Source: Lunularia cruciata (taxonomy: Eukaryota > Streptophyta > Marchantiopsida > Lunulariales > Lunulariaceae). Taken from it: a DNA stretch of 64,000 nucleotides. The notes beneath the pieces were generated by a model, which made no database searches, was not told the DNA's origin, and saw nothing but the letters and a program-made list of their open reading frames with translations. The stretch covers positions 59,596,333 to 59,660,332 of the forward strand of contig OX419756.1 of the NCBI GenBank assembly GCA_948567375.1, given 5' to 3'. This document shows, one piece after another, positions 8,838-47,204 of the stretch. How positions within the stretch are numbered: the stretch's first letter is position 1; each line of letters begins with the position of its first letter. The translations under genes and the position numbers were made by a program.

Positions 8838-9239
8838 TTGGTTACTGGTCTTGTTACGTTGACAACTCTCACACGATCAAACAAAGTCCCGAACATCTTG
8901 TATCATGTTGGGCCACCACCATTGGCATTAGAGGGTGCCCAAGGTCTTGTCCACTCCCATGTGACAAGTTGTTGGTAAATCATGGGCTTCTTGAAGGCGC
9001 ACAAGTCAAAGATTACCTTTGGCTGGAACATAGATCTGGTCCGCATGGAATAGAAGGTCTTCCTTGAAGGGAAAGGTATTACACTCCTTGTTGCATACTA
9101 TCAAATGACCATGTACCATTTGGAAGAAGGGATCTTGTTGTAGAGCTGATCAAAACTTGTTATGGACCTTGGGGTCAATTGAGACCATCGTAATTACCAC
9201 CATGATGAGAGGAAGAGCCTTCAAATCAGGTCATTGTGA

Positions 9240-10772
9240 TAGAGCATCAAGGATGAATGGAACCGACCTGGTTTGTAATCAAGTTTGATGTCAAATAATT
9301 GGAGTTGCTCTTCCCATCAATGATATCGACTCTTTGTGTGCTCCAAGTGTAGGGTTTGCAATAATGGCTTATGATGAGTTCACATGATCACTTGTTTCCC
9401 CAAGAGATAATGTCTCTATACCTTGGTGACATATACCATTGCAAGTTGTTCTTATCTTGAGCAGAATAATTTCTTTCAGCTGTATTTAGTTGGCGAGACA
9501 CAAAGACAATGGGATGTTGTAGTCCATCTAGGAATTCCTTGTTGCAACACAAATCCAATTGCAAAGTTAGAAGCATCAAAATCAACCACACAAGGTAGTT
9601 GAGGATCATATGGTTGAAGAATGGGTCTTGAAGACACCATATGTTTTAACTTTTGGAATGCTTCTTCATGCTTGATGGTCCACTGGAAGCTTGAGTTCTT
9701 TCCTAAGAGGTCAATGGTGCAGCCACATGAACATTATAATGGATGAACCGTTGGTAAAAACTGGCCAATCCATTGAATACCCATACTTTTGTAGTATTCT
9801 TCAGTGTAGGCGAATCAGTAATGGCCTTGATCTTCTCTTCTTCCATCTTGATCTCCTCTAATGAGATCTTATGACCCAAGAAGGTAACCTCCTTTTGCCA
9901 AAAGGCACACTTTGACTTCTTGCAATAAAATTTCTATTATTGTAGTTGTCTTAAGATTTCTTGCACATGATTCATGTGTTTTGCCTCTATCTTTCTATTA
10001 TTGTAGTCATCTTAGGACTTCTCACACATGATTCATGTGTTCTGCCTCTGTCTTTCTATAGATTAAGATATCATCCAAGAACACCACCATAGACCAATCT
10101 AATAGTCCATCCAACACACAATGCATTTGATCCATGAAGACTATTGGAGCATTAGTGAGTCCAAAAGGCAGAACTCTCCACTCAAAATGCCCATACCTTG
10201 TGTGAAAGGTAGTCTTTTGCATATCCTCTCTATCAATAGGAATTTGCCAATAGCCGCTACAAAGATCCAACTTGGAAAAGTAGCATGCTCCACTTAGTTG
10301 ATCAAGCAAGTCATCAATCCAACGCAAGGGATATGCATTCTTCACGGTTTGCTTATTGAACTCATGATAATCAATACAAAAATGAAGTCCTCCATCCTTC
10401 TTTGGAACAAATAGTACTGGTGCTCCCCAAGGAGATATACTATGTCATATGAAGTCCTTCTCCAACAACTCTATAAGTGTTGTTTGCAACTCCTCTAACT
10501 CCTTTGGTGAGAGCCGAGAGATTGGTCTACTCACTGGAGTACTCCAGCAATAACTTGATCTTGAAGCGCATACTTTGATCAAAGTGTAATCCCTTTGGCA
10601 GATCATCCGGAAACATGTTTGCAAACTCTTTAACTATTTGATCAACCATTGCTTGATGAGGCTCTTGGCCCTCCACAGATTGTTCTTGTGCAATTGGCTT
10701 GATCCACACCACAAATATAGACTTATCTTCCTCCAAAGCTTGCTCTCTGGTTGCTTTACTAACAAACTTCAC
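9240..10772 (-). pseudogene. Gyp-B RT and RNase H remnants
   Basis: Minus-strand blocks. RNase H lies at about 9240-9620 (the ERNYSAQD block is visible). RT lies at about 9850-10500, with [14 protein letters not shown], the LPFGLTNAP block and the catalytic VFLDDILIY all in one open segment at 10022-10345. The PR-RT linker is at 10527-10772. Stops separate the segments. The RT active site is of the FLDD type common in this family. Confidence 0.8.
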
Positions 10773-16469: not shown

Positions 16470-17740
16470 GGTTGTAGGATTTTGGTTGATTCTGGAAGTT
16501 CAGAACATTGCATGTCTATGCAAGTTGCAAAGGAATTGGGTATTCCTATCAAGTCATTGTTTGGAAGTAGTTTGATGATGGCGGATGGTAGAAAGGGTTC
16601 TGCATTCCGCACCTCACATCATGTTACCTTCAAGATTGGGAAGGAGTATTTGGAGTGTATGAGGTTTGTAGTGGCACCTCTACACTATGATATCATTCTG
16701 GGTCTACCTTGGCTTGAACGTCATAAGGTTCAATTTGATTGGACTCGACAACAAATTCAAGTACAACACCAAGGTAGAAATTTCCGATTAGGTTGTCTGG
16801 CACCTCTGAGTAAGACACCTAAGAATAGTCAATCCCAAGATGGGAAGTTTGTCAAGAAGGTAGCCATAGAGCAAATATGGAAGGGGGATGAGTCCCAAGA
16901 TGGGGAGTTTGCCAAGAAGGCAACCATAGAGTAAGCTTGGAAGAGAGATGAGTCCCTGGAAGGGAAGTTTGTTAATGAAGCGGCCATAGAGCAAGCTTTG
17001 GAGGAAGATAAGTCTGTATTTGCGGTGTGGGTCAAGCCGATTGCACAAGAACAATATGAGGAGGGCCAAGAGCCTCATCAAGCAATGGTGGATCGGATAG
17101 TTCAGGAGTTTGCAGATGTGTTTCCGGATGATCTTCCAAAGAGATTACCCTCTGATCAAGGTATGCCCTTCAAGATCGAGTTATTGCCAAGGAGTACTCC
17201 AGTGAGTAGACCAATCTATCGGCTCTCACCAAAGGAGTTGGAGGAGTTGTGAACAACACTTACAGAGTTGTTGGAGAAGGATTTCATATGACATAGTACC
17301 TCTCCTTGGGGAGCACCAGTACTATTTGTTCCAAAGAAGGATGGAAGACTTTGTTTCTGTATTGATTACCGTGGACTCAATAAGCAAACTGTGAAGAATG
17401 CATACCTCTTGCCTCGGATCGATGACCTGCTTGATCAACTAAGTAGAGCACGCTACTTTTCCAAGCTGGATCTTCGTAGCGGCTATTGGCAAATTCCTAT
17501 TGAAGGAGAGGACGTGCAAAAGACTACCTTTCGCACAAGGTATGGACATTTCGAGTGGAGAGTTCTACCTTTTGGACTCACTAATGCTCCAGCAGTCTTC
17601 ATGGATCAAATGCATTGGGTGTTGGAGGGACTATTGGATCGGTCCATGGTGGTGTTCTTAGATGATATTCTATTCTATAGCAAGACAGAGGCAGAACACG
17701 TGAATCATGTGCAAGAAGTCCTAAAACGACTACGATAGTG
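16470..17740 (+). pseudogene. Gyp-D protease and reverse transcriptase
   Basis: The protease starts around 16470 with the intact active site VDSGSS (Asp near 16485) and the later hydrophobic block ILGLPWL. A linker containing three imperfect repeats of about 60 bp (16800-17000) follows. RT occupies about 17170-17740, with [26 protein letters not shown] and the active site VFLDDILFY (FLDD). Stops at 16932-16934, 17250-17252, 17287-17289 and 17736-17738 interrupt a single frame, without frameshifts. Confidence 0.85.
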
Positions 17741-17749
17741 GAATTTCTA

Positions 17750-19745
17750 CTGCAAGAAGTCAAAGTGTACTTTTTGGCAAAAGAAGGTTACCTTCTTGGG
17801 TCATAAGATCTGATCAGAGGGGATCAAGATGGAAGAAGAGAAGATCAAAGCCATTATTGATTGGCCTACCCCAAAGGATGCTACAGAAGTACAAGCATTC
17901 AATGGATTGGCCAGTTTTTACCGACGGTTCATCCACTATTATGCTCACGTGGCTGCACCATTGACTGACCTCTTGGGAAAGAACTCAAGCTTCCAGTGGA
18001 CCACCAAGCATGAAGAAGCATTCCAGAAGTTAAAGCATATGGTGTCTTCAAGACCCATTCTTCAACCATATGATCCTCAACTACCTTGTGTGGTTGATTT
18101 TGATGCTTCTAACTTTGCGATTGGAGCTGTGTTGCAACAAGAATTTCCAGATGGACTACATCCTATCGCCTTTGTGTCTTGCCAACTAAATACAGCTGAA
18201 AGAAATTACTCTGCTCAAGATCGGGAACAACTTGCAATGGTATATGCCACCAAGGTATGGAGGCATTATCTCTTGGGGAAACAAGTGATCATACAAACTG
18301 ATCACAAACCATTGTTGCAGACCTTACACTTGGAGCACATGAAGAGTCGGCATCATCGATGGGAAGAGCAACTTCAATTGTTTGACATCAAACTTGAGTA
18401 CAAACCAGGTCGGTTCCATGTCATCCCCGATGCTCTATCACGACGACCTGATTTGAAGGATCTTCCTCTCATCACGGCGGCAATTACAACGGTGTCCATT
18501 GACCCTAAGGTCCATAATGAGTTTCAATAAGCTCTACAACAAGATACCTTCTTCCAAATGGTACACGGTCGTTTGACAGCACGCGACAAGGAGAACAACA
18601 CCTTCTCCTTCAAGGAAGGCCTTTTATTCCATGAAGACCAAATCTATGTTCCAGCCAAAGGTGATCTTCGACTTGTGTGCCTTCAAGAAGCCCATGATTT
18701 ACCAATAGCTGGTCACACGGGAGTGGACAAGACCTTGGGCACCCTCCAACGCCAATGGTGGTGGCCCAACATGACACGAGATGTTCAAGACTTTGTCCGA
18801 TCATGTGAGAGTTGCCAATAGAACAAGGCCAGCAACCAGAAGCCGAGTGGACTCCTTCAACCACTCGCCATTCCATCCGCTCGTTGGGAGCATGTGAGCT
18901 TGGATCTCATCACATCCTTGCCAAAGACAAAACAAAGACACACCACAATTGTGGTATTTGTGGATAAGCTTAGTAAGCAAATCCACTTGGCACCAACCTG
19001 TGATACCGTGGATGCTCCAACCTTAGCGCAAATCTACTTCGACAATGTCTTCAAGCATCATGGGATGCCACGTGTACTCATCTCCGACTGTGATCCTTGA
19101 TTTACCGGGAAGTTTTGGCAAGCACTCTTCCACATACTCGGCACCAAGCTTGCTTTTTCCACAGCCTATCATCCTCAAATTGATGGACAAACCAAACACG
19201 CCAATTGTACATTGGAGGATATGTTGCGGGCCTTTGTCAATGTCCACCATACCAACTGGGATGAATGTCTTGCAGCTGCAAAATTTGCCTACAACAATTC
19301 CAAACAGGCAAGCACTGGATTTTCTCCCTTCTTTCTCAATTTTGGCCAAGATCCACTTGTTCCAGATTCTCTTCTTGCTCTCCCTCCCTCTCAAGTTCCT
19401 CATACTTCTACATTCTTGACCGCTATATCCCAATCTCTCCAAGAAGCCAAATCTCACCTCCTTGTTGCTCAGAATTGCCAAAAACAATATGCGAACCATC
19501 ATCGTCGTGATCTCACCTTTGAAGTTGGTGATAAAGTCATGCTATCCTCTAGTAACCTCCCTCTCCCACTTGATACCCAAGTTTGTAAACTTGCTCCTAA
19601 TTGGATAGGACCCTTTGATATCACCCACATTATCTCTCCTGTTGCTTATCGACTTGCCTTACCTTGTCACATGCATATCCATCCTGTCTTTCATGTTTCC
19701 AAGTTGAAACCCTTTGTTCCTAACCCTTCTTCCTTTTCCTCTTGA
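17750..19745 (+). pseudogene. Gyp-D RNase H and integrase
   Basis: RNase H lies at about 18060-18460, with the acidic residues in VDFDAS, QDREQLA, TDHKPL and IPDALSR. The integrase zinc region is at about 18690-18820 (two His, then C-X2-C in SCESC). The integrase core is at 18894-19260 with Asp in SLDLITSL and Asp in ISDCDP. The expected Glu is Lys (DGQTKHAN, where Gyp-B has DGQTERAN), so this integrase is catalytically dead irrespective of its stops. Stops lie near 18528, 18819, 19098 and 19743. Confidence 0.85.
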
Positions 19746-20408: not shown

Positions 20409-22788
20409 TAAGGTCTTGTATACACCCATGTGACAAGCAATTGGTAAGTCATGGGATTCTTAGAGGTACATAAGTTGGAGATCACTGTTGGCTAGAACAT
20501 ATATCTGGTCCTCATGGAATAGAAGACCTTCCTTGAACAAGAAGGTGTTGTATTCCTTGTTGCATGTTGCAAGATAACCTTGTACCATCTAAAAGAAGGG
20601 ATCTTGTTGTAGAGCTATCTTTAACTCAATTTGGACCTTGAAGTCAACTGACACCATCGTAATTGTCACCGTGATGAGAAGAAGAGACTTCAAATCAGGT
20701 TGTCATGATAGGGCATCAAGGATGACATGGAACCGACCGGGGTTTGTACTCAAGTTTGATATCAAAAAATTGGAGTTGCTCCTCCCCTTGATGTGTTCCA
20801 AATGTAATGTCTATAACATGGGTTTATCATTGGTTTGCATGATCACTTGTTTTCTCAAGAGATAATGCCTCCATACCTTAGTAGTATACACCATTACTTG
20901 TTGTTTTTGATCTTATGCAAAGTTATTCTTTTTTGCATTGTTTAGTTGGTGAGACACAAAGGCAATGGGATGTAACCCATCTAGGAATTTTTGTTGCAAC
21001 ACTGCTCCAATAGCAAAGTTAAAAGCATCAAAGTCAAACATACAAGGTAGTTGAGGATCATATGGTTGAAGAATGGGTCTTGAAGACACCATATGTTTTA
21101 GCTTATATAATGCTTCTTCATGCTTGGTGGTCCATTGAAAACTTGAGTTTTTCTCCAAGAGGTTGATCAATGGTGCCGCCACTATTATGGTGCACATAAT
21201 AGTGGATGAACCGTTGGTAAAAACTTGCTAATACATTAAATGCTCACACCTCTACAACATCCTTTGCAATAGGCCAATCAATGATGACTTTGATTTTCTC
21301 TTCTTCCATCTTGATCCCTTTTGATGAGATCTTGTGACCTAAGAAAGTAACTTCCTTATGCCAAAAAGCACACTTTGACTTCTTGTAATAAAAATTCTAA
21401 TTGATGTAGTTGCCTAAGGACTTCTTGCACATGATTTGTGTGTTCTACCTCCGTCTTACTATAGATTAAAATGTCAACTAAGAACACCACCATTTTCCAA
21501 TCCAATAGTCTATCTAATTCATGATTGCATCTAATCCAGGAAGATTGTTGGAGCATTAGTGAGCCCAAAAGCTAGAATTCTCCATTCAAAATGCCTATAC
21601 CTTATGCAAAAGGTAGTCTTTTGCACATCCTCCCTATCAATGAGGATTTGCCAATAGCCACTACAATGATCCAACTTGGAGAAGTATCATGCTCTACTCA
21701 ATTGATCAAGCAAGTCATTAATTTGGGGCAAGGGATATGCATTCTTCACTAGTTGCTTATTGAGTCCATAGTAATCAATATAGAAACAAAGTCCTCCATC
21801 CTTCTTTGGAAAAAATAGTACTAGTGCTCCCCAAGGAGATGTATTATATCATATGAAATCCTTCTCCAACAACTCCAGGAGGGTTTTTAACTCCTCCAAT
21901 TCCTTTGGTAAGAGTCAATGGATTAGTCTTCTCACTAATCTATTGACTCCTTGGCAATAAATCAATCTTGAAGTGCACACCGGGATTGAAGAATAATCGC
22001 TTTGGCAGATCATAGGGAAACACGTTTGCAAACTCCTGGTATATATTTGGTTCTCATGGAATAGAAGGACTTCCTTGAAGGAGCAGGTGTTGTACTCCTT
22101 GTTGCATGTTGCAAGATAACCTTGTACCATCTAAAAGAAGGGATCTTGTTATAGAGCTATCCCAAACTCACTTTGGACCTTGGAATCGCCATCGTGATGA
22201 GAGGAAAAGACTTCAAATCAGGTCATTGTGATAGGGCATTAGGGATGACATGGAATAGATTGGGTTTGTACTCAAGTTTGATGTCAAAAAATTAAAATTG
22301 CTCCTCCCATTGATGATGTTGACTTTGATGTGTTCCAATGTAATGTTTGTAACAAGGGTTATTGTCAGTTTGCATGATCACTTGTTTTCCAAAGAGTTAA
22401 GACCTCTATACCTTGGTAGCATATACCATTGTTATTTACTCTCAATCTTGTGCAGAGTAATTCCTTTCTGTAGTGTTTAATTTGCAGACACAAAGGCAAT
22501 GGAATGTAACCCATTTGGGAATTCGTGTTGCAACACAACTCCAACGGCAAAGTTAGAAGCATTAAATTCAACCACACAAGGTAGTTGAGGATCATATGGT
22601 TAAAGAATGGGTCTTGAAGACACCATATGTTTCAACTTCTAGAATGCTTCTTCATGCTTGGCAATCCATTTAAAGCTTGAGTTTTTCCCAAAGAGGTTGA
22701 TCAATGGTGTTGCCTCGTGTGCATGATGGTGGATGAACCATCGGTAAAAAATTTCCAATCCATTAAATGCTTGCACCTCTATGGCATT
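20409..22788 (-). pseudogene. Gyp-C middle: duplicated integrase-zinc / RNase H / RT segment
   Basis: Read leftward in element sense, the block from 22042 back to about 20450 covers linker, RT, RNase H and integrase zinc region. At 22043-22788 a second copy of the integrase zinc and RNase H region begins, running to the start of RT where Gyp-M is inserted. RT landmarks on the minus strand lie near 21380-21900 and RNase H landmarks near 20920-21200 and again near 22370-22700. All are broken by stops. Confidence 0.7.
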
Positions 22789-22895
22789 TGTCGTGCGTAT
22801 ATACATCGCTACACAACATACATCGCTGTCAACATCATACACTATAAAAGCACAACTCACATATAAGTCATACATAGACTCTAAAGTGCCACAAT
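22789..22895 (-). repeat. Gyp-M repeat B2 (outer left end)
   Basis: A 107-bp sequence starting TGTCGTGCG at the target duplication. Matching B1 at 23346-23452 has about four differences. It contains CTATAAAAG on the plus strand. Confidence 0.9.
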
Positions 22896-23343
22896 AATCA
22901 GATTGCTTAACACTCTCAACTCAACTCAACTCAGATCAGTACTTGATCTGTCACTCTATAAACTGCCAACAACTGGGCACTGATTACAGTCAAGCCACAC
23001 CCACTCAAGCATAGAGAATCCAGGTGACGCTCGCCGGCCTCTGTCCACCATAGCTAGGAACTCAAAGGCTCAACATCAGAGAAGTGAGCTCTCTGGAGCT
23101 CACTTCGAAACTATACCCCCTGGACTCGAGCTAGCCCTGAAACCCTAACGGTCCCGCTGACGGCACACTCGACGGTGCAAATGGTGCAAAGTGACGGTGG
23201 GCCCCACCGTGAAGTCAGTACCCCGAACACAAAATCTAACCATCGGAAAGTAGTCCTTGAGAAACTGCTAGAATAACTCTAACTACCATCACTGGAACTC
23301 CAGTGTCCGAGCATCTAGATGCGGAACTACAAATGGCGTGACA
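22896..23343 (-). repeat. Gyp-M repeat A2
   Basis: A 448-bp sequence AATCAGATTGC to GGCGTGACA, matching A1 at the right end of the element (32261-32708). Together with B2 it forms a 555-bp unit beginning and ending TG/CA like an LTR. Together with B1 it forms a 557-bp unit that fits between the polypurine-like tract and the leader. Confidence 0.9.
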
Positions 23344-23345
23344 GC

Positions 23346-23452
23346 TGTCGTGCGTATATACATTGCTACACAACATACATTGCTGTCAACATCATACACT
23401 ATAAAAGCACAACTCACACATAAGTCATACATAGACTCTAAAGTACCACAAT
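23346..23452 (-). repeat. Gyp-M repeat B1
   Basis: A 107-bp copy of B2 lying inside the element, two bases (GC) from A2. Its inner edge abuts CGCCCCCC (23453-23460), whose complement GGGGGGCG is the only good polypurine-tract candidate. This suggests that plus-strand priming defines B1 as the start of the replication LTR. Confidence 0.88.
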
Positions 23453-23619
23453 CGCCCCCCTAGCTGGCGGTTAGGTCCCTCTAACTCCAGATAGCCATCT
23501 ACTCTAAGTATATGGTATACCCTCTAATGGGCAAAGATCAGGAGGCCGGGTGCTATGGAGCCCCATCGTTAGTCACCTGTCTGCAATCTATACCATATAA
23601 AGAATGAACTAGCTATAGG

Positions 23620-24057
23620 TCAAGTACATCTAGGACATAACCACTGTCCCTGAGGAACCACCGTGAGGGGAGGAGTCATACATGCCATATGCCATCCTCT
23701 CGAACAGCTATCACACACTAACATAGTAGCAGCTCCACCAGAAGAGCCACATAACATACACCTCAAGCCTGCACGTACAAGTGCCAAGCTTGGGTCCATA
23801 GTACCATCAATGTTTGGAAGGTGGCATGGCGCACAATTGCGCACATGATCCTTCCAAACAACACCATCACGTCCTTCTAACACAAGGACTCCAGATGGCA
23901 AAACCTCGCGCACTCTCAAGATAGTGCGGCCTGTAGAAACATCAAGTGTCGTCGGTGCTGTCTGCTGTAGATATACATAGTCGCCTGGATGAAATCGACG
24001 GATCGAGGGTCTATAACCTCCTCCTCGAATGGTAGCATAGCGTAAAGTATCTCTATG
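23620..24057 (-). pseudogene. Gyp-M pol C-terminus: integrase C-terminal domain and PHD finger
   Basis: In frame with pol after the TAG at 24058-24060. The segment 23980-23800 has the FHPGDYVYL block and following beta-rich sequence typical of the integrase C-terminal domain of Ty3/gypsy elements. Then comes a C4HC3 PHD finger at about 23763-23626: CMLC, then VCDSCSRGWHMAC, then WLCPRC, matching C-X2-C-X11-C-X2-C-X4-H-X2-C-X14-C-X2-C with the conserved Trp before the last cysteine pair. The frame ends at TGA 23620-23622. PHD fingers bind histone H3 tails. Here it occupies the place of the chromodomain in the neighbouring elements and probably guides integration or MTase activity (inference). 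Confidence 0.85.
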
Positions 24058-26523
24058 CTAAGCAATCGCCAAGTTCTCAAAGGCCATCGGCATCACTCTC
24101 CGAAAGATCTCTACCCGCTGAGAACATGCGCTCATCCATACATCGGGGTCATCCAAGTCCAAAACTACAGTAGCATCTTGACGAATGGCTATAGGTAAAT
24201 CTGGATCTCGTCCATAGAGTAGAAAGTATGGAGAGAAGGATGCTAAGGAGGCTTGCCGGCTGAACCGATAGCCCATGGCCAACCAAGGTAACTGGAGATC
24301 CCAATCTCCCAAGTGGCCTCTCTGCAAACCATACTTTCGCAATCCTCTCTTCACCGTCTGAACCACTCTCTCTGCTAAGCCATCTGCCTCAGGGTGATCT
24401 CGGGATGTAGTACGATGATCAATCAAAGCCTTGTCACACAAGACCTGAAACTCTCCCAAGAACTCTGTACCCTGATCAGTCAAAACCTCAGCTGGTGCAC
24501 CAAAATGACTAAGAACTTGATCCAAGAACGAGTAAGCTGTCCCTTCACTAGACTTGTCAGGAAGTGCCACCAACTCAATCCACTTGGAGAAGTGCTCCAC
24601 CATCACCAAAACATACCGATGATGTCTCACAGTCAACGGTAAAGGTCCGGCAAAGTCCAAACTCCAATGGTAATCCAATCCCATGATAGGTAATGGGTGT
24701 AACTGTGGCGTAGGAGCATTGAATGATGCTCTAACTCGGTCACAAACCACACATCTGGCAACAAACTGCTGTACCTTGGTCTGCATACCGCGCCACCAAT
24801 AATGACTCTGGAGTAAGCTATATGTACGCTTTACTCCAAAATGTCCTAGCTCCTCATGAGCATGACGGACCAACTGTGGTCTCTGTGATGGAAGTGGTAC
24901 TACTCGCACTCTACCATCCTCCCATACACGCAAAAGGTGTCTACCCTCCAATCTGAACCGTCTGGCTCGCTGAAGAACACGGTCTCTCTCCTTGGCCCCA
25001 ACTGTGCCACCCACAACACCAGTGCGAAGATAGTCCATCACTAAGACATCATCATGAATGTCTCGCTGAACTGTACCAATATCTTCACTCTCTGGATCTG
25101 TGGCCTCAATAACTCCTCTTGTATGCGTTGAGAGAGATACCACCAAAGTCTCTGCAAATATACACAGAAAGGCCGATGCATGCCAACCTGGCACCATCTC
25201 CTCATCTGTCTCACCATGCCAACGTGCTCCGGTCTGATCCTGCTGGCTGGGACATGGGTTTCTACTCAACCCATCTGCATCACGGTTCACCACTCCAAGT
25301 CTGTGAACAACCGTGAAATCATACTCCTGTAAAATCAGAGCCCATCGTGCAAGCTTCCTTGAAAGCTTGTCGGACTCCATCAACCACTTCAGCGGCTGAT
25401 GATCAGTGATGAGAGTGAAGGGGTTACCAAATAGGTAACATCGGAAATGCACTACTGCCCAAACTGCTGCCAAGCACTCTCCCTCATATGAACTATACTT
25501 TGCCTCCGCTGAATTGTTGGAGCGACTAGCATAGGCCACCACAAACTCCTTCTCCTCATCATCATGCTGGGTGAGCACCGCTCCAAGCCCCAACATACTC
25601 CAATCAGTATGAACCTGAAATGGTCGTCCCCTGATCGGTCTCCTCAAAATAGGAGCAGATGTCAACCTCTCCTTGAGCTCTACAAAAGCTCTCTCCTGCT
25701 CATCTCCCCAACACCACTCCTGTGTAAGCTTGGTCAGCTTCGTCAAGGCCTTGGCAATGGCACTAAATCCTCTAACATAGCGGCGATAGAAGTTCGCCAA
25801 CCCAAGGAATGCTCGCACTCTGCTCACATCCGTAGGCCGAGGAATACGTGCAATAGCCTCCACCTTGGTCTGCTGAACACCAAGTCCTCCGGGGTAGATA
25901 GTGTGACCCAAATACTCAACCTGCTCGTGGAAGAACCTACACTTCCCAAGATGTAGTTTGAGTCCATGAGATCTCAACGTCTCAAACACCTCCAACAACT
26001 GTCTCTCATGCTCCTCCATAGTAGTGCTATAAACCAAAATGTCATCAATATAGCACCAAGCAAAATCCAATCCAGCTAGGATCCTATCCATGACCCTCTG
26101 GAACTCAGCAGGAGCGTTCTTTAACCCAAATGGTAAGAACCTCCACTGATATAACACATCCTTGCCGTGAGGATCAATAGCCCAAAATGTTGTCTTGGAC
26201 TTATCCTCCTCCCTGATCGGCAACTGATGATATCCCGCTCGAAGATCCAAAGTACTGAAGACCTTTGCATGCCCAATCGCATCAAAAATCTCCTCCGGTG
26301 TAGGCATGGCATACTGATCAGCCCTGGTCTGTCGGTTGATAGGACGGTAATCTCCACACATCCGCCTATCTGTATAGTTGCCATGCATATCCTTCTTGGC
26401 TGGCATCACTGTCGCTGATGCATACTCTCCATGTGAAATCTCCACCAAACCAGCCTCAAAAAGGTCACTACTCCGGCTCTGAATCAATGTCCTCTCCATA
26501 TCACTATATTGATACGGACGTCA
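24058..26523 (-). pseudogene. Gyp-M reverse transcriptase, RNase H and DDE integrase (813 codons open)
   Basis: A single uninterrupted stretch from 26520 to 24061. RT has FSTLDLRAGYHQLPI, the LPFGLKNAP block and the active site CYIDDILVY (YIDD near 26050). RNase H has Asp in VHTDWS, Glu in SYEGECLA, Asp in TDHQPL and Asp in DADGLSR. The integrase zinc region has two His (HAHEELGHFG) and CVVC. The integrase core has LDFAGPL, LTDQGTEF and DGLAERVV, with 34 residues between the second Asp and the Glu, the standard D-D-35-E spacing. All catalytic residues are intact. The segment is bounded by TGA at 26521 and TAG at 24058. RT and RNase H resemble Ty3/gypsy but differ clearly from the chromoviruses around it. 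Confidence 0.93.
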
Positions 26524-27074
26524 GAAAACTGGTGTGTCACTAGTCAGCTCAATCCGTATACCAGGTCCCTTCAGAGCACCCAAATCCTTCATACTGAAGG
26601 CAAAACAACTCGTGTGACTCCTCAAGAACCTCCAAACCCTCCGTCTTTCCTCTCTAGTAAGCTTGGGTCCAAGATCTGGCTCCCAAGTATCCTCTGTAAC
26701 TGTAGTAGGAGTGGAAGACGTACTGACTGGCTGCTACACTGGGCCCTTGGGAGCAATGGTGTCATGCTCCCGACCACTAGAGGTCCCAACCTCTGTGTGA
26801 AAAACTCCCTCCACTCTGGCTGCAAGCTCCATACGTCCTCTGGCTGCATCCCATGTGGACCAAGGGTGTAATCCAAGTAGCCCACGCTCACCTGGATGGA
26901 CTCCAAGTAGACCACTCTCCCTAGTAGCTACTGGATGTGTCCCAAGAATACCATGTCCACTCGGTCCATCGCCCCCAGCATGTGCCTGAATCGTCTTGAT
27001 AGGCATAGGGCTCACAAGTGTCCGAGTGGTGATGCCTATCAAGCGCATCCTACGCTGCTCTGCCAAACCAAGGC
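26524..27074 (-). pseudogene. Gyp-M linker between methyltransferase and RT
   Basis: In-frame region with a TAG at 26734-26736. The upstream half (about 26740-27070) is Gly/His-rich with a short internal repeat (GLLGVHPGERGLLGLHP). The downstream half leads into the RT fingers. No known domain is recognised. It may contain a polyprotein cleavage site separating the methyltransferase from RT. Confidence 0.6.
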
Positions 27075-28030
27075 TCCCAATCCAGGTCAAACAGTTCAGG
27101 TCCATAGCCTGACCTAACACCTGACGCCTGGATGCCTCTGACACTGCTGGAACAGTGGTAATACCGGTGCGAAAACCCATTGCCCGCTCTCTCTCATCAG
27201 CATTGGGCTCCACCAACTGCTGTAACTGTGAGTCCCAAACAAGTCTAAGTCCTCCCTCTCAAAAAGCATGAGAGCCTGGGAAACTCATGAGTGTGGGAAA
27301 TGCAGCTCTAGGCTATCCAACTAGGTTCACCACTGCCATAGGTGACCTATCAGCCACTACCACTGTCTGAGACTGACGCCCAACATCCAAGATATCATCA
27401 ACAAGAATGTGGTCCAATCGCTGAATCCCATCATAAGCACGCTGTAGAACCTCTCTGGGTAAGAGGTTCGTCCACCAAAGACGAAGACGATGAGCCCGTG
27501 ATCCCACTCTGGCTGCATCTAACAATACAGTAGGTCCCATCCAAGAATGGACCTGATGTGTACTTGCCACCACTCTAGTGCGAGAATCACCCAACAAAGG
27601 AACGTTCTCCAAAAGGTAAGCTGGAGAAACAGACTGATGAACCTGGAGATGTCGTAGTATCCGTAACATCTCCCAAAACACACCAGACCGAGGATCTTGA
27701 AGACCCAAACCGTGGCCCGCACGTGTATGTCCCTGACATGGCCATCCAGAAATCACCAAGTGAATAGGCCCATGTCTCTCTAGGTCATGCGCCCCCAATA
27801 AGGAAATGTCTCCTGGTAAGGCCTTCTAGTAACCTCTGACTGCTGACATCGGTAATAACTCCGGATACCGATAGGCCAAGTGTGCCACATGATGTAGAGA
27901 GACTCGCCTAGCAGTCTCATCTCTCTCTACATACAAGTACCTCTGTACTCGGATACCCGCCTGTAACACCGCAGCTAGTCCGGTGCTGATCCCACCAAAC
28001 AACTCTAATAGACATATCCCCTCTACTGGA
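27075..28030 (-). pseudogene. Gyp-M C5-cytosine DNA methyltransferase domain (DNMT3-like)
   Basis: Motif I (LLELFGGISTGL, SAM binding, near 28010) is followed by the motif II acid in YLYVERD; motif IV SGWPCQGHT with the catalytic Cys codon at 27736-27738; motif VI LLENV with the catalytic Glu at 27607-27609; motif VIII SRAHRLRLWW near 27490; motif IX ERERAMGF; and motif X VLGQAMDL near 27117. The order is canonical, which excludes the permuted plant DRM type. There is no BAH or chromodomain insert as in MET1 or CMT. By eye motifs I and VIII are closest to DNMT3, but motif IV has PCQG where DNMT3 has PCN. The length, about 320 residues, is normal for a catalytic domain. Three in-frame stops (27826 TAG, 27313 TAG, 27259 TGA) interrupt it, but no catalytic residue is lost. 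Confidence 0.9.
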
Positions 28031-29103
28031 TACTGCCAAGCAATGAGTGTGGTATCCAGAGGTGTCAAAGCAATCGCCTCTGGAGGCTCATCCTCACACT
28101 CATCCCCTGATGGTATGAAGGCTCCACTCCAAGCTTGCTGCACCAACTGATCTGCATGCTGCTGCAATGCCTCCTCTGAACTCCACAATGGAACATCCAA
28201 GGTGGATGGAACAATCCCACTTGTACTCCATAGCCGAGTGATCTCCTCTGGTACTGGAGTATCCTCTGCATGGGCGTTCCCCTCCAACAAGTCACCAGGC
28301 CAAGTAACTGCACCGCTGAAAGCCAAAACTGATGCTGCCATGGTCCCGGACTGTAGTGAGCCAAGACTGCCACTACTGAAGCGTACTGGTAGGCGACATA
28401 CCCATCCCTCACCAGACTGCCAACCAGGTCTATAAGAGGCTGTCTCCTCCCAATAGTCAATGCTGAAACCCATAGGGTATAACACTGCTCCCCCAACATC
28501 AGCTATCGTCGCAATAGCGTGAGCTCTCACCACCAAGCTATCAGTCGGATGACCAGGCTGAACCTGGACAACAAGCTCTCCACGTGTGATGTACTGTGTC
28601 GAACCACCACCAAGAGATGTCTGGATCTGAAATGGACACCTCTCCACATCGGTCTTCCGTAACTCCAGACCAACAACTGCAGCCTTCCCCAACATAAGGG
28701 GCTGCGCACCATAGTCTAACAAGACTCTTTGTGGTGTATAGACCTTCCCTGAAGGTCCCACTAAACGAAAGATCCCCCTCTGGTTATCCAATAGGACAAC
28801 ACCAGGTGTAAACCGCGCTCTCTCAAAGGCCGGTCTAGCTGGCAACTCCTCCAGTCTAGCCGCTGCTGCCTGCCATAAACCACTGGTCGCTGAACGGATC
28901 CCATGCTCCTCAACCAAGTTAGCTCCACTACCAACCACCTTTGCTCTAGTAGTAGGAACCGCACCATCCCTACTCTCACACAACGTGGCAGCCAACCGAA
29001 ACACTGGGGCTGGGTCAACTCCCAATGTAAACATGTCACTGGCTGAAAATAAAGGATGCCGCATAATCAGCTGAGCCGCCCCCAACATCATGCTAGACTC
29101 AGT
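28031..29103 (-). pseudogene. Gyp-M aspartic-protease-like region
   Basis: Open from 29103 down into the methyltransferase. A retropepsin-like active site reads VLLDYGAQPLMLG (Asp codon 28714-28716), where most elements have D-S/T-G-A; Tyr in the second position is unusual. A following beta-rich stretch to about 28450 fits a protease fold. The assignment rests on position between gag and the enzymes and on this motif, so it is moderate. The last 130 residues before motif I of the methyltransferase are unassigned. Confidence 0.6.
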
Positions 29104-31005
29104 CTATGTAGTAGCAGGTGGCTGACTAGCAGGTACTCCATCAAGTACTCCATCACCACCTACCACACCTGCACTGGGACGTCTAGGAACCATGGATGTC
29201 ATCTGCAATGCCTCAGATAGCGTGAAAGACTGGGGAAGTCTGACTTGTCTCCCAACCTCTCCTCTCTGTGGGTCCAACTCCACTGATGCTCCTCTAGGCT
29301 CTGGAGCACGTACTGCACTCCTAGTCACTGCTGCAGATGCATCCACCTGTGCTGCTCCGCACATGAAGTCCAAAGCATCTCTATCACCAGCATATGAGGT
29401 GGAAGCCTCAGCACCCGAATCTGATCTCCTTTGAGCAATAGCCATACTAGCCAATCTCTGCTCCAACTGCTCAATCCGAGTAGCCATAGCTGTGTCAGAA
29501 GTAAGGGCAGGTACTGCACCCCTACTAGGTGTAGATCCTCTACCACCACCTCTACCACCTCGTCCTCCATGAACTGGAGCTCCTCTACTACCTGTCATAG
29601 CAGCCCTACCACTCCGTAACTCCGGGTGTAGGTCAAAACACCGGTCACTAGTATGACCAAATCTATGGCAGTGCTCACACTGCCTCTGTGCTGGCTGTGA
29701 TGCACCAGAGGTATCAGGTCCGCTGCCCTGAGTACACTCTCTCCTATGGTGAGGTCCACCACAAGTCCAACAAGCAACACCACCACTCATTGGCTGCTGC
29801 TGACCCGAAAATGAGGGTAAGGGTCTAACTCCACTAGGCCCTCCACTCGCTCCATAGGATCTGGGCTGTCCACCCTGTCCTTGAAAACCAACTGGGCGTG
29901 GTGCACTCTGCTGCACTCTAGAAGAAGTCACAACCGTGGATGAGGTCTCTCTACCAAATCCAGCTGTCACTACTCTCTCTTCCACCATGTTGAGCTCAAT
30001 ACGCTCAGCCAAACCAAAGACTACTGCCAAAGTGGGCGAAGTAGCCTACAACAACGTAGCATCACGAACTCTATGTCGCAACTCCCTGTCCAGTATCCCA
30101 TACCAAAACTGGACTGCTTGGGCCTCAGTAACTCCCTGAGTGAAACTGATCAGCCGCCTCATGCGAGTGTATGCCTCGCGTAGGCTCTCTCCAGCCTTCC
30201 GCTGGAACTCCTGCAAGCTCCTTAGCTTGTCAGTCCGCACTCCCTGGTAGTTCTGCCTCAAACATAGGAAGAACTCCACCATGGGGTTAAACCCCGGTAC
30301 CACACCACCTCTTGCAGCGGTACCTCCACTCGTAGTAGCACTATCTCCAACTAGTGCACCTCCACTAGCTCCACCCACACTACTCGAGCTAGAACTCGTA
30401 GGTACAGTAGATCTACTCCTGGCCACCGAGCCTGAAGTGATGGAGACATAGTGTGGAGACCAATACTGTCTCCATAACTCAATCTCCTCCAAATGAGCTC
30501 TCCTGAACTCATGGTAATCATCCATCGGTGGACCCTCCAAGTACTGAAACAACCCCTTCCATGCCATGAAAGGTGTGAACAAAGTCGGGTTCCGCATCTG
30601 CTGCAGATCACACCAACTATCAAACTCCTGGATGAGGTCATCCAACTCAATGGTACCCATTGTACCAGAGTAACGCCTAGGGCCTTTGTAGGCCCCATAA
30701 ATCTCGTCCATGTCCCACAACAATGGTGCGGACACACCAAGTGCACTCTCAACTGAATCAGCTCCTGTGTCGAACTCCAACTTAGAGTCAATCTCCTCCC
30801 TCACTGGGACCTGAGATACAGGCTGATACCGAGCACCACTCCGAGTAAACCCACTGCGTACTGCAGGGCTAACTCCTCTGGAATCTCCAAAGAACTCTGT
30901 CGTGACCACGTAACTGCAACAGCAAACCCGAACCACCAATTGCAACCGCAAGTCGCAACCGCAAGTACCCCACCAAGTGCCAACACCGCCACGTGCCAAC
31001 ACCAA
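29104..31005 (-). pseudogene. Gyp-M gag (capsid-like region and zinc knuckles)
   Basis: The frame opens after a TAG at 31006-31008. The first ATG is at 30709-30711 (MDEIYGAYKG), preferred because upstream codons look non-coding. A retrotransposon gag block lies at about 30300-30050 (LRSLQEFQRKAGESLREAY). Nucleocapsid-like motifs follow: an atypical CWTCGGPHHRREC and a canonical CEHCHRFGHTSDRC (C-X2-C-X4-H-X4-C) near 29650-29780. Ser/Gly-rich sequence follows. Stops are TAG at 30046-30048 and TAG at 29104-29106. Gag and pol share one frame, so a single polyprotein is implied. Confidence 0.82.
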
Positions 31006-31472
31006 CTAAAACACCACCCACTAATGTAACTCTAACCGAGATAACTACACTAGGGGAAGGGCAACCTGTAACCTGCCATCATAACACGCACTCTCACGGT
31101 CTGTAGGTCATCACTTCCTGCCTCACCGGAGAGAAACAAAGGTAGTCTGATTGGTCATCACTCCAGCCTCACCACCGAGAGCACACCAGAGCACCAACGC
31201 TCAAAAGTCAAGGCACCTCACACAAACGTGGTGCACAAACAGGAAGCAGAGAATGGAGGGGATCCAATCACAAGAAATCTAAACGAAAAACACTCCATCT
31301 CATAACACAACACGGGACTGACTCTGCCACCATTTGGCATTTGACATAAGAGTAGTTCGTATCTAAGTCCTAAGCTACCAGGATCACCAAGAATGGGATC
31401 AAACTGCCTCTCCTAGCCAAAGCTACATGTGTATAGATAACAATAGCACAGTCACTATGACAACAAGTGAGG

Positions 31473-31538
31473 GTGGACCAGTTGGCTAGGGCACCAGTCT
31501 AGGAACAAGAGATCTAGGGGTCAAACCCTGTTGCGCAC
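31473..31538 (+). ncRNA. tRNA-like / SINE-head-like segment
   Basis: About 66 bases with an A-box-like stretch (TTGGCTAGGGC, 31482-31492) and a B-box with T-stem (AGGGGTCAAACCCTG, 31516-31530). The outer ends pair weakly (GTG/CAC) and the anticodon arm is poor, so it is not a functional tRNA gene. It could be the head of a tRNA-derived SINE inserted in the leader, or a coincidental fold. Confidence 0.35.
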
Positions 31539-31724
31539 AATCTAGCAAGAAAGGCAGATTTTGCCAACCAATGACCAAGATCTACACTAAACTAGCTAGC
31601 CTCACGCCAACAAGCTGGCTTGTTGGCCCTTCTAGGCCTTCGTAGCCTCTCATAGCCCACAGCCCTATGCCTCAAAGCCTTGAAATGCCGAAATTCAGCC
31701 AAATGAGGCCTTTCTTGTTGCCAC

Positions 31725-31835
31725 TTCGAACCTCCTCCAAAATTGGCAAAACTTCTCCAAATCTGCGAAACTCCTCCAAACTAGCGAAACTTCTCCAAAT
31801 CTGGCCAAACAGTGAAACTCCTCCAATTCTGGCCC
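31725..31835. repeat. Imperfect short tandem repeats in Gyp-M leader
   Basis: A motif of about 20 bp with core CGAAACTCCTCCAAA recurs four to five times with variation. Confidence 0.6.
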
Positions 31836-32260
31836 AAAATCTGACATAAATCTGACGTAAACCCTAAAGATGGATGTCTGCCAAATCCCCCGCTAACTTT
31901 CCACTCGAGCCAAATTGACAAAACGGGTTTTTCCAAATCACAATTTCATGAGAAGAGCTTTCCAACTCCACCTTCAATTTCACTTTCTGAGCCCAACTCG
32001 CAGCAAATTGGTCCTACCTTCACCTCTTGAGCTCAAAATCACAACACTGCTCGAAAATTGCTCCTTCTTTGCTCAAAATTTGGCCAGCGCTTCCGCACAC
32101 CGTCCGCCTAACTGCCAAATTTGCATCAACTACACGAGCTTCTGCACACTAGGGAAACACAGAACCTGAATTGAGCTACCACGATCCACCGAGCTTGGAG
32201 ATACCACCAACACTCAACGTTCCTGCACCCGATTTCCCCCTGACTTCACTTCTCTGATGT

Positions 32261-32708
32261 AATCAGATTGCTTAACACTCTCAACTCAACTCAACTCAGA
32301 TCAGTACTTGATCTGTCACTCTATAAACTGCCAACAACTGGGCACTGATTACAGTCAAGCCACACCCACTCAAGCATAGAGAATCCAGGTGACGCTCGCC
32401 GGCCTCTGTCCACCATAGCCAGGAACTCGAAGGCTCAACATCAAAGAAGTGAGCTCTCTAGAGCTCACTTCGAAACTATACCCCCTGGACTCGAGCTAGC
32501 CCTGAAACCCTAACGGTCCCGCTGACGGCACACTCGACGGTGCAAACGGTGCAAAGTGACGGTGGGCCCCACCGTGAAGTCAGTACCCCGAACACGAAAT
32601 CTAACCATCGAAAAGTAGTCCGTGAGAAACTGCTAGAATAACTCTAACTACCATCACTGGAACTCCAGTGTCCGAGCATCTAGATGCGGAACTACAAATG
32701 GCGTGACA
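32261..32708 (-). repeat. Gyp-M repeat A1 (5' end of element)
   Basis: A 448-bp copy of A2 (22896-23343). Its outer end GGCGTGACA abuts the target duplication CATT. In element sense it begins TGTCACGCC, typical of a Ty3/gypsy LTR start. It lacks the 107-bp B segment that follows A2. Confidence 0.9.
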
Positions 32709-32712
32709 CATT

Positions 32713-35437
32713 CTTTGGATTAGGCCAACCAACAATGGCCTTGATTTTCTCCTATTCCATCTTAATCCCTTCTAATGAGATCTTGTGACCCAAGAAGGTA
32801 ACTTCCTTTTGCCAAAAGGTACAGTTTGACTCCTTGCAATAAAAATTCCATAAATGTAGTGACCTTAAGACTTCTTGCACATTATTTGTGTGTTCTGTCT
32901 CCATCTTGCTATAGATTAAAAGGTCATCCAAGAAGACCATCATGTACCAATTTAATAGTCAATCCGACACTCAATGCATTTGGTCCATGAAGATGCTAGA
33001 GCATTAGTGAGCCTAAAAGATAGAACTTTCCATTCAAAATTTCCATATCTTGTGTGAAAGGAAATCTTTTGCATATCTTCCCTATCAATTGGGAGTTACA
33101 AACAACCATTGCAAAGATCCAACTTGAAGAAGTATTGTGATCCACTCAATTGATCAAGCAAGTCATCAATTTGAGGCAAGTGATATGCATTCTTCATTTT
33201 TGTTTATTGAGCCTATGTTAATTGATATAGAATTGAAGTCCTCCATCTTTCTTTGGAATGAATAGTACCAATGCTCCCCAAGGAGATGTACTATTTTGTA
33301 TGAAATCCTTCTCCTACAACTCCATAAGTGTTATTTGCAACTCCTCCAACTCCTTTGGTGAGAGTCGATAGATTGGTCTACTCATTGGAGTACTCCCAAG
33401 CAATAACTCAATCTTGGAAGGCATACCATGATCAAAGCGTGATCCCTTTGATAGATCATCCAAAATACATCCACAAACTCCTAAACTATTTGATTAACCA
33501 TTGCTTGGTGAGGCTCTTGACCCTCCTCCAATTCTCCTTGTGTAATTGGCTTGATCTACACCACAAAATAGATTTATCTTCCTCCAAAGCTTACTCTATA
33601 GTTGCACTAACAAACTTCCCATCTATGACTTAATTTCCTTCAAAGCTTACTTTATGACTACTTTCTTGATAAACTTCTAATCTTGGAACTTATCTTCCTT
33701 CAAAGCTTGCTCTATGGTTGCTTTCTTGACAAACTTCTCATCTTGGGACTTATCTTCCCTCAAAGCTTGCTCTATGGCTACTTACTTGACAAACTTCTCA
33801 TTTTGGGACTTATTATTCTTAGATGTCTTAAAAAAGTGCCAAACAACCTAATTGGAAATTCCTACCTTGGTGTTGTACTTGAATTTATCATCGGATCTAA
33901 TCAAATTGAACCTTATGACGTTCAAGCCAAAATAAACCCAAACTAAGATCATAGTGTTGAGGTGCCACTACAAACCTCACACACTCCAAATACTCCTTCC
34001 CAATCTTGAATATAATAAGATATGAGGTACAAAATGCAAAACCCTTTCTACCATCTACCATCATCAATCTACTTCCAATTACTAGCTTGATAAGAATATG
34101 TAATTCCTTTGCTAATTTCATGGACATACAATTCTTTGAATTTCCGAAATCAACTAAAATCAACCAACCATGATGAAATATCATACCTTGCAAGTGACGC
34201 AAACTTTTGTATGTCGAGCTTTCAATCCCTTTGGAACTAATCATGTTCCCAGTAGGTGGCTCAAAATCTCCTATTGGGATTCCTTGATTCCTTGATCATT
34301 ATGCTCCACAAGCTCCATCTAGGCGACTTGTCAAGGTCACTCATTCTTGAGTGGACATTTAACTATGTAATGTCCAATTTGATGATAGTAGAAACAACCA
34401 CCATTTTGTCACAATTTTTCTCTATATGTAGTGCCAAGTGGTCTTTGTTGAATGACATTAATCTCCATTGGTGCTAGATCCTCCACCTATATGTAGTGCA
34501 TTGGTTGGTTTTGTGGAGGTTGAGGTCAAGACCAAGTTGTTGCAGCGAAGGAATCAAAGCGTTTGGCCAACCATATGGTTTTCTCCAAGTGTTGTCATCT
34601 TGCATAGTTACCTATAATTTGGTTTATGACTTCAACTCCTCACAAATTGATCTAGAGTTTCACCTTCTAGTATATCTAGAATTTGCATGACAATGTTCTA
34701 GAACTAAATGATGTAACTTCTTATAGAGCCAATCTGCTTTAACTCTATCAATCTATCTCGTGCGGCTTGTGTGATATTTATAGCTTAGAATTGACCAATT
34801 ATTATAGTCTTGAATTTTGCTCAAATCAAGATTGGTGCAACATATTGTGCAGTTCAACTTGCTCCACATAGAATTGCCACCATAGCTTTGCTACTCCATT
34901 CAATTCAAGCCAAGAGAATTTTTTCCTTTCATATTGAAGATTGGTAGCTTCAAAATAACATTTGCAGTCAAAAACCAAATCCTCCACTACACCCAAAAGA
35001 TTCTTGCCTTCAAATACCTTAGGTTTTGGAAATTGGATTTGGTGTACTCCTTCTCAAATTGATGCTCTCTCTACATGCTCTTGTCATTAATGGTCTTGTT
35101 CATCCAACAATTAAGTAAGGTGTTCAATTTATTGCTACATAGCAATGATAACCTTGGGCATTGCTCCCATGGCTACTACTCTGTCATACTACTCCTAATT
35201 TATCTAATTTATTAACATAGATGCAACACGTCCACCATTTTCCATAAGTTACAACCTGAAGTACAAAGGGTTCCTCAAACAAGGTGATTGCATTCAAAAA
35301 AATCTGCCCAAAGTGTGAGTTGATGAAGTGTGTGAAATGATGCTTGGGTAAACCCAAACACAAAAATCCCAATGTTTTGGCAGAAAAAAATTTAGTGGTC
35401 CAAAAATTCCATCCATCCCATTCTTGCTGTAATACAA
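32713..35437 (-). pseudogene. Gyp-C RT, linker, protease and gag remnants
   Basis: Continuation of Gyp-C after Gyp-M. RT is at about 32713-33380, the linker with its short repeats at about 33480-33850, protease at about 33870-34240 (active-site region altered, VDFGNS) and gag with a damaged zinc knuckle at about 34260-35170. The primer-binding site near 35427-35437 is degenerate. Dense stops and indels are present. Confidence 0.7.
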
Positions 35438-46159: not shown

Positions 46160-47204
46160 AGAGAAAGAGAGGTGCAGAGGTATCATTTGCAGATGTTACA
46201 GTTTCTCGAAATTGGGATTGGGATTGCTGTTTATTTGGAGCAATAGTGATGGTGCCTTGTCTTGGCCGGTACAGTTGTTGCTTTTTTTCCTTCTCGTCCT
46301 CGGGTAGAGTTAACAGAAAAGGTGCGTTGAAGGCTGTGCTAGGACTCTGACTGGGCTGGTATAGGTGAGAAACGGGATCCGCTATATTCTAAAGGGTGGG
46401 AATCTGGTCCATTTCAACGCCTATTGCTGTGGATAGAGAGAGAAAGAAGATAGTTGACACCAACAATAGCCGGAGTGATGGAGGAGGTACGGAGATGGGT
46501 TTCATTTTCTTCGAGAACTGTGTCTGCAGTTCGCATGCATGAGGAAGAAGAGTCAAAGTGAGAGAGAAGATTCAGAGGCATACGTGCCTTCCTGCCTGGA
46601 TCCGGACCTGGACTTGCAATTTAAGAGGAAGATCTTTTCCTTCAGGTAGCTATAATCTCGTCTGGGTGGCAAGGGGGCGTGGGTGTTTGTAGGATGAGCC
46701 AGAGTTCAGGTAGCGTACTTTCCATTTTCGCGCATGCTTAGATCAGTGTAGTGTTGCAGGGGGAGACTGCAGGAGCACGAGGTGCTGATGCTTCTGGAAA
46801 TTCTGGCGAGCTTTCAGGGTGTAGGCGGATGACAGTTTCGGATGGAATTGATCACAACCTGTCCTCTCGGCCGCTATCGCTTCATTGTCCTGCTGCACTT
46901 TGAGAGGCCCGATATGGAGTCAGTTGCTGTTACTCAATTCGAGGATACCGTAGTAGTTGAGGAAGATGGATGCTCCTTCGACAGCCTTACTTCGCCGAAT
47001 TTCAGCTCGACTTGTGGACCACAGGAGTTTCCTGCCAGTGTGCATAGAATTGTACAACTCGACCAGTGGATGAACTTGACGAGAATTTCATAGGAGCAGA
47101 TCCGCTTGTCTTCTTTTTGGTCAACATCTGATCAACCATCAGTTGATTAGTTGGTGCAGTTAAACTTCAGGAGTCCTCTGGAAGACATCAGCAAGTAGGG
47201 AAGA

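What the first reader, a model, noticed from the sequence alone, without database searches (positions are those of the whole stretch)
27075..28030. A DNA cytosine methyltransferase is built into the pol polyprotein of a Ty3/gypsy retrotransposon
Between the protease-like region and reverse transcriptase, in the same frame, lie all the diagnostic C5-MTase motifs: ELFGGISTG (I), PCQ with the catalytic Cys (IV), ENV (VI), AHRLR (VIII), an ERERAMGF-type IX and LGQAM (X). The order is canonical, so this is not a plant DRM, and it lacks the insert of CMT/MET1. Published work (de Mendoza and colleagues, 2018) describes independent capture of DNMTs by retrotransposons in dinoflagellates and charophyte algae and shows such enzymes can methylate CG de novo. 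This copy may be a related or a separate capture. Methylating its own DNA could help it mimic silent chromatin or limit its own activity.
Basis: partly seen in the sequence, partly recalled or inferred. Interest (0 to 1): 0.93.

Follow-up and report, generated by a model that had tools for sequence, protein, structure and literature searches.

The report
Jumping gene carrying DNA-methylating enzyme
A decayed plant-type jumping gene carries the remains of an enzyme that puts methyl marks on DNA, plus a small module that looks like a histone reader; related elements in liverworts, peat mosses and green algae carry the enzyme too, so this is a family and not a one-off accident.

Summary

A lone capture is unlikely. 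Related enzymes occur in Calypogeia, Marchantia, Riccia, Sphagnum and Closterium. RT and methyltransferase distances correlate over 15 elements (Mantel r 0.78). Some relatives encode Gag-protease-methyltransferase in one ORF.

Three things were not in the reading: a PHD finger after the integrase (in 36 of 37 retrieved relatives long enough to show it); split-repeat ends (A-coding-B-A-B), the layout reported for KnitGypsy-Dnmt3 of Klebsormidium; and a second clade with the methyltransferase between RNase H and integrase.

Most likely it methylates the element's own DNA while the PHD finger guides integration; that is inferred. It is a new variant of a known kind, extending it to land plants, from which a 2019 paper calls methylase-coding transposons absent. 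The window's host was not identified.

The parts
22789..32708 (-). Whole Ty3/gypsy-type retroelement, inserted in an older gypsy-like element
   Evidence: Terminal TG...CA, flanked by 4-bp CATT duplication; diverged paralogous site without the element at about 21254-21257
32260..32708 (-). Split repeat A, 5' copy (449 bp, 441 identical to 22895-23343)
   Evidence: Alignment
22895..23343 (-). Split repeat A, 3' copy
   Evidence: Alignment
23346..23450 (-). Split repeat B, first copy (105 bp), preceded by a G-rich, polypurine-like run
   Evidence: Alignment and junction print
22789..22893 (-). Split repeat B, terminal copy (101 of 105 identical to the first)
   Evidence: Alignment
30049..31005 (-). 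Gag, N-terminal part of the frame
   Evidence: PF03732 weak and below its cut-off, E 0.0097
29107..30045 (-). Gag, two CCHC-type zinc knuckles at 29772-29734 and 29679-29638
   Evidence: Motif positions; no Pfam match
28687..28725 (-). Protease active-site region; relatives with the motif read D-T/S-G-A, this copy D-Y-G-A
   Evidence: relative P0022 PF13650 E 1.4e-5
27082..28005 (-). DNMT3-type C5 cytosine methyltransferase domain, motifs I to X, three in-frame stops
24061..26520 (-). Open 820-aa frame: reverse transcriptase, RNase H, H2C2 and rve integrase
   Evidence: PF00078 2.3e-32, PF17917 6.4e-36, PF17921 2e-18, PF00665 3.9e-13
23623..23760 (-). PHD finger at the C-terminus after integrase, last codons before the frame's final stop
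   Evidence: PF00628 E 1.2e-11; PDB PHD matches

Best explanation
This is a decayed copy of a Ty3/gypsy-type retroelement from a clade of the green lineage that took up a DNMT3-type cytosine methyltransferase and a PHD finger. Shown by sequence: gag, protease, MTase, RT-RNase H, DDE integrase and PHD in that order; split terminal repeats (A-coding-B-A-B); a 4-bp target duplication, which points to integrase and not tyrosine recombinase. Shown by comparison: uninterrupted MTase domains with the catalytic cysteine in relatives, some with a PHD finger in the same protein (P0192, P0229, P0230, hosts unnamed), and agreement of MTase and RT distances. Inferred: the MTase is packaged with the particle and methylates the element's new DNA before or at integration, so that the copy enters the genome already marked; the PHD finger, whose sequence resembles readers of unmodified H3K4, tethers the integration complex to chromatin, the job that a chromodomain does in chromoviruses. 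Also inferred: the internal B-A junction, which holds the fused termini around a 10-bp palindrome, serves as template for both ends or as a circle-type integration substrate. I put the identity and family at about 0.97, methylation of its own DNA at about 0.5, and the PHD targeting role at about 0.45; the confidence below is for the combined reading.
Against: No biochemical or methylome data for this clade. The Klebsormidium gypsy MTase showed no activity in yeast, which the authors call inconclusive. The Tetrabaena relative P0193 keeps the slot but lacks a recognisable catalytic motif, so the MTase is dispensable somewhere. No Closterium row lists PF00628, and P0186 (Tetraselmis by its id) runs past the integrase without a PHD. 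Element CpG observed/expected (0.48) lies between its flanks (0.26 left, 0.61 right), so it shows no special mark. Ka/Ks could not be computed because no DNA of relatives was reachable. The PHD class is judged by similarity only. The split-repeat layout rests on one copy here plus one figure legend.
Confidence: 0.55

Rival explanations
1. A separate, lineage-specific capture of a host DNMT3 by this element, independent of other retroelement MTases.
For: Host DNMT3 genes of green plants were not in my sets, so a close host donor cannot be excluded. de Mendoza 2018 described the Klebsormidium case as an acquisition in that lineage.
Against: The window and 51 retrieved relatives (not every one seen beside an RT) fall on one side against DNMT3A, P0099 and P0100, with 93/95, just under the starred level, and with long outgroup branches; RT and MTase distances agree; slot-II rows lie together in both trees.
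Confidence: 0.1
2. The MTase is a passenger or acts on RNA or as a structural part, not as a DNA methylase of the element's own copy.
For: Inconclusive yeast result for the Klebsormidium gypsy enzyme; degenerate MTase in Tetrabaena P0193.
Against: Retention of catalytic residues over distant relatives (44 of 45 for Cys) and DNMT3-like fold.
Confidence: 0.25
3. The terminal layout is an ordinary LTR pair damaged by a deletion in the 5' LTR and a duplication of 105 bp beside the 3' LTR.
For: Only one copy was available as DNA.
Against: The termini TG...CA are flanked by a 4-bp duplication exactly at the A and B ends; a G-rich run abuts the internal B copy; the Klebsormidium element is said to have the repeat structure of DIRS, given there as A-coding-B-A-B, the order also known from PAT and Ngaro elements.
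Confidence: 0.12
4. Assembly chimera or host gene fragment next to a retroelement.
For: None found.
Against: MTase and RT in one protein from Marchantia (P0156, P0151) and Closterium, and in environmental P0228; one frame and one set of termini in the window.
Confidence: 0.01

Closest known systems
KnitGypsy-Dnmt3 of Klebsormidium nitens (de Mendoza et al. 2018, PMC5890265; abstract, sections 9, 11, 15 and passages read)
   Same: Ty3/gypsy domain set, DNMT3-type MTase without rearranged motifs, repeat structure stated to be the same as that of a DIRS element (given as A-coding-B-A-B)
   Different: Its MTase sequence was not among my listed hits, so kinship of the MTase itself is not shown; the main text has no 'PHD' (0 occurrences); it was reported from a charophyte alga, here named relatives include land plants
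SymbioDIRS-Dnmt3 and SymbioLINE-Dnmt (same paper)
   Same: Retroelement with C5-MTase; DIRS forms use DNMT3 type and split repeats
   Different: Those use a tyrosine recombinase or LINE machinery; here a DDE integrase with target duplication
DNMT3A/DNMT3B catalytic domain
   Same: Best profile and fold match, canonical motif order I to X
   Different: 24-28% identity in the structural alignments; no PWWP or ADD match beside it; WPCQ or WECQ in place of SPCN
Chromoviruses (Ty3/gypsy with chromodomain)
   Same: A histone-reader-type module sits at the integrase C-terminus
   Different: The module is a PHD finger; no chromodomain match in the tail at E up to 1
PAT/Ngaro elements
   Same: Split direct repeats A1 ... 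B1 A2 B2 (PMC6681497 passage)
   Different: They are tyrosine-recombinase elements; this element has rve integrase and a target duplication

Membership tests
Ty3/gypsy (Metaviridae) | Order RT, RNase H, integrase with gag and aspartyl protease upstream | tested here: met
   gag and protease by weak match and motifs
Ty3/gypsy (Metaviridae) | Target-site duplication of 4-5 bp with TG...CA ends | tested here: met
   CATT duplication; 4 or 5 bp is characteristic of most plant LTR lineages (PMC6317226 passage)
Ty3/gypsy (Metaviridae) | The same LTR at each end | tested here: not met
   Ends are split repeats A-coding-B-A-B; so it is filed as Ty3/gypsy-type by its proteins, not as a standard LTR element
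DNMT3 | C5-MTase motifs I to X in canonical order, best similarity to DNMT3 | tested here: met
DNMT3 | Placement within the eukaryotic DNMT3 clade in a tree with DNMT1, CMT, DNMT5 and DRM | not tested
   Only human DNMT3A pieces and two distant environmental proteins (P0099, P0100) were used as outside rows
Plant DRM | Rearranged motif order | tested here: not met
   Motif I precedes IV to X in the frame
KnitGypsy-Dnmt3 | DNMT3-type domain in the coding frame of an LTR gypsy element | tested here: met
KnitGypsy-Dnmt3 | DIRS-like repeat structure | tested here: met
   against figure legends
KnitGypsy-Dnmt3 | MTase and RT closest to the Klebsormidium element | tested here: inconclusive
   Klebsormidium RTs lie in the same RT tree, but the nearest named rows are liverwort; its MTase was not retrieved
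DIRS/PAT | Tyrosine recombinase and no target duplication | tested here: not met
   rve integrase present, CATT duplication present
Chromovirus | Chromodomain after integrase | tested here: not met
   Tail ORF matches PHD-type and related zinc-finger families and weakly C1_2, no chromodomain at E up to 1

The most novel reading that the evidence does not exclude
A single ancient capture, older than the split of chlorophytes and streptophytes or spread sideways among green plants, made a Ty3/gypsy-type clade that carries its own writer of DNA methylation and its own histone reader, and that integrates through split repeats with a DDE integrase. The element enters the genome pre-marked and pre-targeted, and persists in living land plants. 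The MTase has moved once between two slots of the coding region.
Probability: 0.35. Interest if true: 0.8.

Novelty: new variant of a known kind. Interest (0 to 1): 0.62.

Why it matters
Host DNA methylation silences retroelements, so an element that encodes a de novo methylase poses a clear paradox. The described C5-MTase cases were charophyte and dinoflagellate. A 2019 paper names green algae and charophytes among hosts of methylase-coding retrotransposons and says they are not present in 'land plants, such as tracheophytes' (PMC6338049, passages); liverworts and peat mosses would be exceptions if that is meant for all land plants. Finding the family in Marchantia, a plant with good genetics, makes the question testable at the bench. 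The added PHD finger would give a second, separate link between element and chromatin.

Tried and rejected
Host of the window: no RNA families or tRNAs found; cytochrome P450 frames at 49562-50811 do not name it. Other DNA copies: viral-contig scans with P0001, the MTase alignment and the RT alignment gave no retroelement locus (the 6 loci match at 31-53% over part of the query and were not opened). The window's own genome could not be searched: the genome search answered 'busy or cannot be reached' 13 times. Ka/Ks was therefore not done. Viral origin: the Foldseek viral library lists phage and giant-virus MTases (best E 1e-15, TM to the 726-aa query 0.31); this is not comparable and does not exclude a viral source. 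DNMT1 and CMT did not appear in the 57 PDB sequences; this is no proof of absence. Primer site: the stretch after repeat A resembles an initiator-tRNA site only weakly, from memory; not claimed.

Full report
What is there. The minus strand of 22789-32708 holds one retroelement. Its frame, read from 31005 down to 23620, has 9 stops in 7386 nt against 84 to 171 in the other five frames. In order it encodes gag with two zinc knuckles, an aspartyl-protease region, a C5 cytosine methyltransferase (MTase), RT, RNase H, an H2C2/rve integrase and a PHD finger; gag (PF03732 below its cut-off) and protease rest on weak matches and motifs. The MTase motifs I, IV, VI, VIII, IX and X lie in canonical order from 28005 to 27082. 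The RT-to-integrase part is an open 820-aa frame; the MTase domain has three stops, so this copy cannot make the enzyme.

Relatives. The MTase search returned 100 proteins, with named hits from Calypogeia fissa, Sphagnum species, Marchantia polymorpha and Riccia sorocarpa; most are unnamed environmental proteins. The RT-integrase search returned 2335, of which the best 120 were listed; named hits include Calypogeia, Riccia, Marchantia, Closterium, Klebsormidium nitens, Tetrabaena socialis and one Tanacetum protein without MTase; ids beginning Tetstr1 I read as Tetraselmis. A third search with the MTase of P0123 gave 14. No vascular plant is named among the MTase hits. Marchantia P0156 and P0151 and Closterium P0160 and P0168 have MTase and RT in one protein; P0189 (Tetstr1) has a partial MTase before RT. 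Seven of seven long proteins examined (P0221-P0227, 1252-1451 aa) run zinc knuckle, protease motif, MTase without RT, and P0228 (2072 aa) is one polyprotein through integrase. In P0192, P0229 and P0230 the MTase lies between RNase H and integrase; Tetrabaena P0193 has a decayed MTase in that slot.

Trees. The MTase tree has 55 rows: 51 of the 231 retrieved proteins, the window, DNMT3A pieces, and P0099 and P0100, two distant environmental hits that I took as outside rows without knowing their source. Proteins covering under 85% of the profile were dropped, except that 8 rows were asked for by name whatever their coverage. The 52 retroelement-type rows stand together (93/95, just under the starred level, with long outside branches; P0099 joins DNMT3A), and the seven slot-II rows lie in one clade with three unlabelled rows (100/99). 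In the RT tree (102 of 231 proteins plus window, quick method) the four slot-II rows also lie together, with unlabelled P0167 (99). Over 15 elements with both domains, three of them pairs joined on equal contig length, tree distances correlate at r 0.784, none of 9999 permutations as high; some MTases there are partial and the deepest MTase branches are weak (61/39). This fits descent of the MTase with the element. It does not fix the date, as spread between hosts is possible.

PHD finger. PF00628 at 1.2e-11. Of 231 retrieved proteins 52 have it at E below 1e-3; of 37 that run at least 150 aa past the integrase match, 36 do, the exception being P0186. These are the best-listed relatives, not a random sample. 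It occurs with both MTase slots (for example P0120 and Marchantia P0068; P0192, P0229, P0230) and in Klebsormidium P0175; no Closterium row lists it. The nearest solved PHDs include CHD4, KMT2D, KDM5B, ATXR5, PHF21A and UHRF1 (best 60 of 91 shown). None of 47 fingers that fit a motif pattern (of 52) has Trp two residues before the zinc-binding His, a position that I recall as part of the H3K4me3 cage; this points to an unmodified-H3 reader, by inference.

Ends. A is 449 bp (22895-23343 and 32260-32708, 441 identical) and B is 105 bp (22789-22893 and 23346-23450, 101 identical). In element orientation the order is A-coding-B-A-B. The termini read TG...CA and are flanked by CATT; a diverged paralogous copy at about 21254-21257 shows the site without the element. 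A G-rich run abuts the internal B. The internal B-A junction is GACA-GC-TGTC, a 10-bp palindrome made of the two termini with 2 bp between. The Klebsormidium element is described with the repeat structure of DIRS (figure legends), and PAT/Ngaro elements have this order (PMC6681497 passage), but those use tyrosine recombinases. A differs at 8 sites, 7 of them transitions; CpG observed/expected in the element is 0.48 with TpG+CpA at 1.26, as expected if the copy has been methylated and is decaying, but the flanks stand at 0.26 (left) and 0.61 (right), so this is no special mark of the element.

Function. Shown: domain order, ends, family, conservation of catalytic residues (Cys 44 of 45). Inferred: methylation of the element's own DNA and PHD-guided integration. 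Against: the Klebsormidium enzyme was inactive in yeast, called inconclusive; Tetrabaena lost the catalytic motif; no nucleotide-level selection test was possible.

Literature. de Mendoza 2018 (PMC5890265; abstract, sections 9, 11, 15, passages) is the base case. PMC6338049 (passages) lists green algae and charophytes as hosts of methylase-coding retrotransposons and says these are not present in land plants, such as tracheophytes. PMC12344493 (passages) repeats DNMT3 in Copia and DIRS elements of streptophytes and dinoflagellates. PMC6317226 (passages) has no 'PHD', 'methyltransferase', 'Marchantia' or 'liverwort' in its main text on plant LTR elements. Searches listed no paper whose title or shown abstract start describes such elements in bryophytes or with a PHD finger; the lists were capped, only open-licence papers were searched and supplements could not be read.

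Noticed in passing
window 20910-21592 and 22445-22781 plus 32708-33040: The element sits in one of two neighbouring, about 82% identical copies of an older gypsy-like sequence, so its insertion is nested.
   Followed up: yes
window 8031-10444 (-) and 16470-19742 (+): Decayed ordinary gypsy elements (protease, RNase H and integrase frames by Pfam, RT frames by my reading); no MTase noticed in the frames of 110 aa or more.
   Followed up: partly
window 47199-50811 (+): Exons of a cytochrome P450 gene (PF00067 in 2 of 3 frames scanned; the first, 47199-47555, is my reading).
   Followed up: partly
window 33628-33807: Three 60-bp tandem copies (82-83% identical to the first).
   Followed up: no
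P0193 (Tetrabaena socialis), residues 571-747: MTase slot between RNase H and integrase kept as a degenerate stretch without recognisable catalytic motif.
   Followed up: partly
P0072, P0077, P0081, P0083, P0090, P0123 and P0192: The residue before the catalytic Cys is Glu (WEC or FEC) instead of Pro; in the alignment this holds for 8 of 45 MTases.
   Followed up: partly
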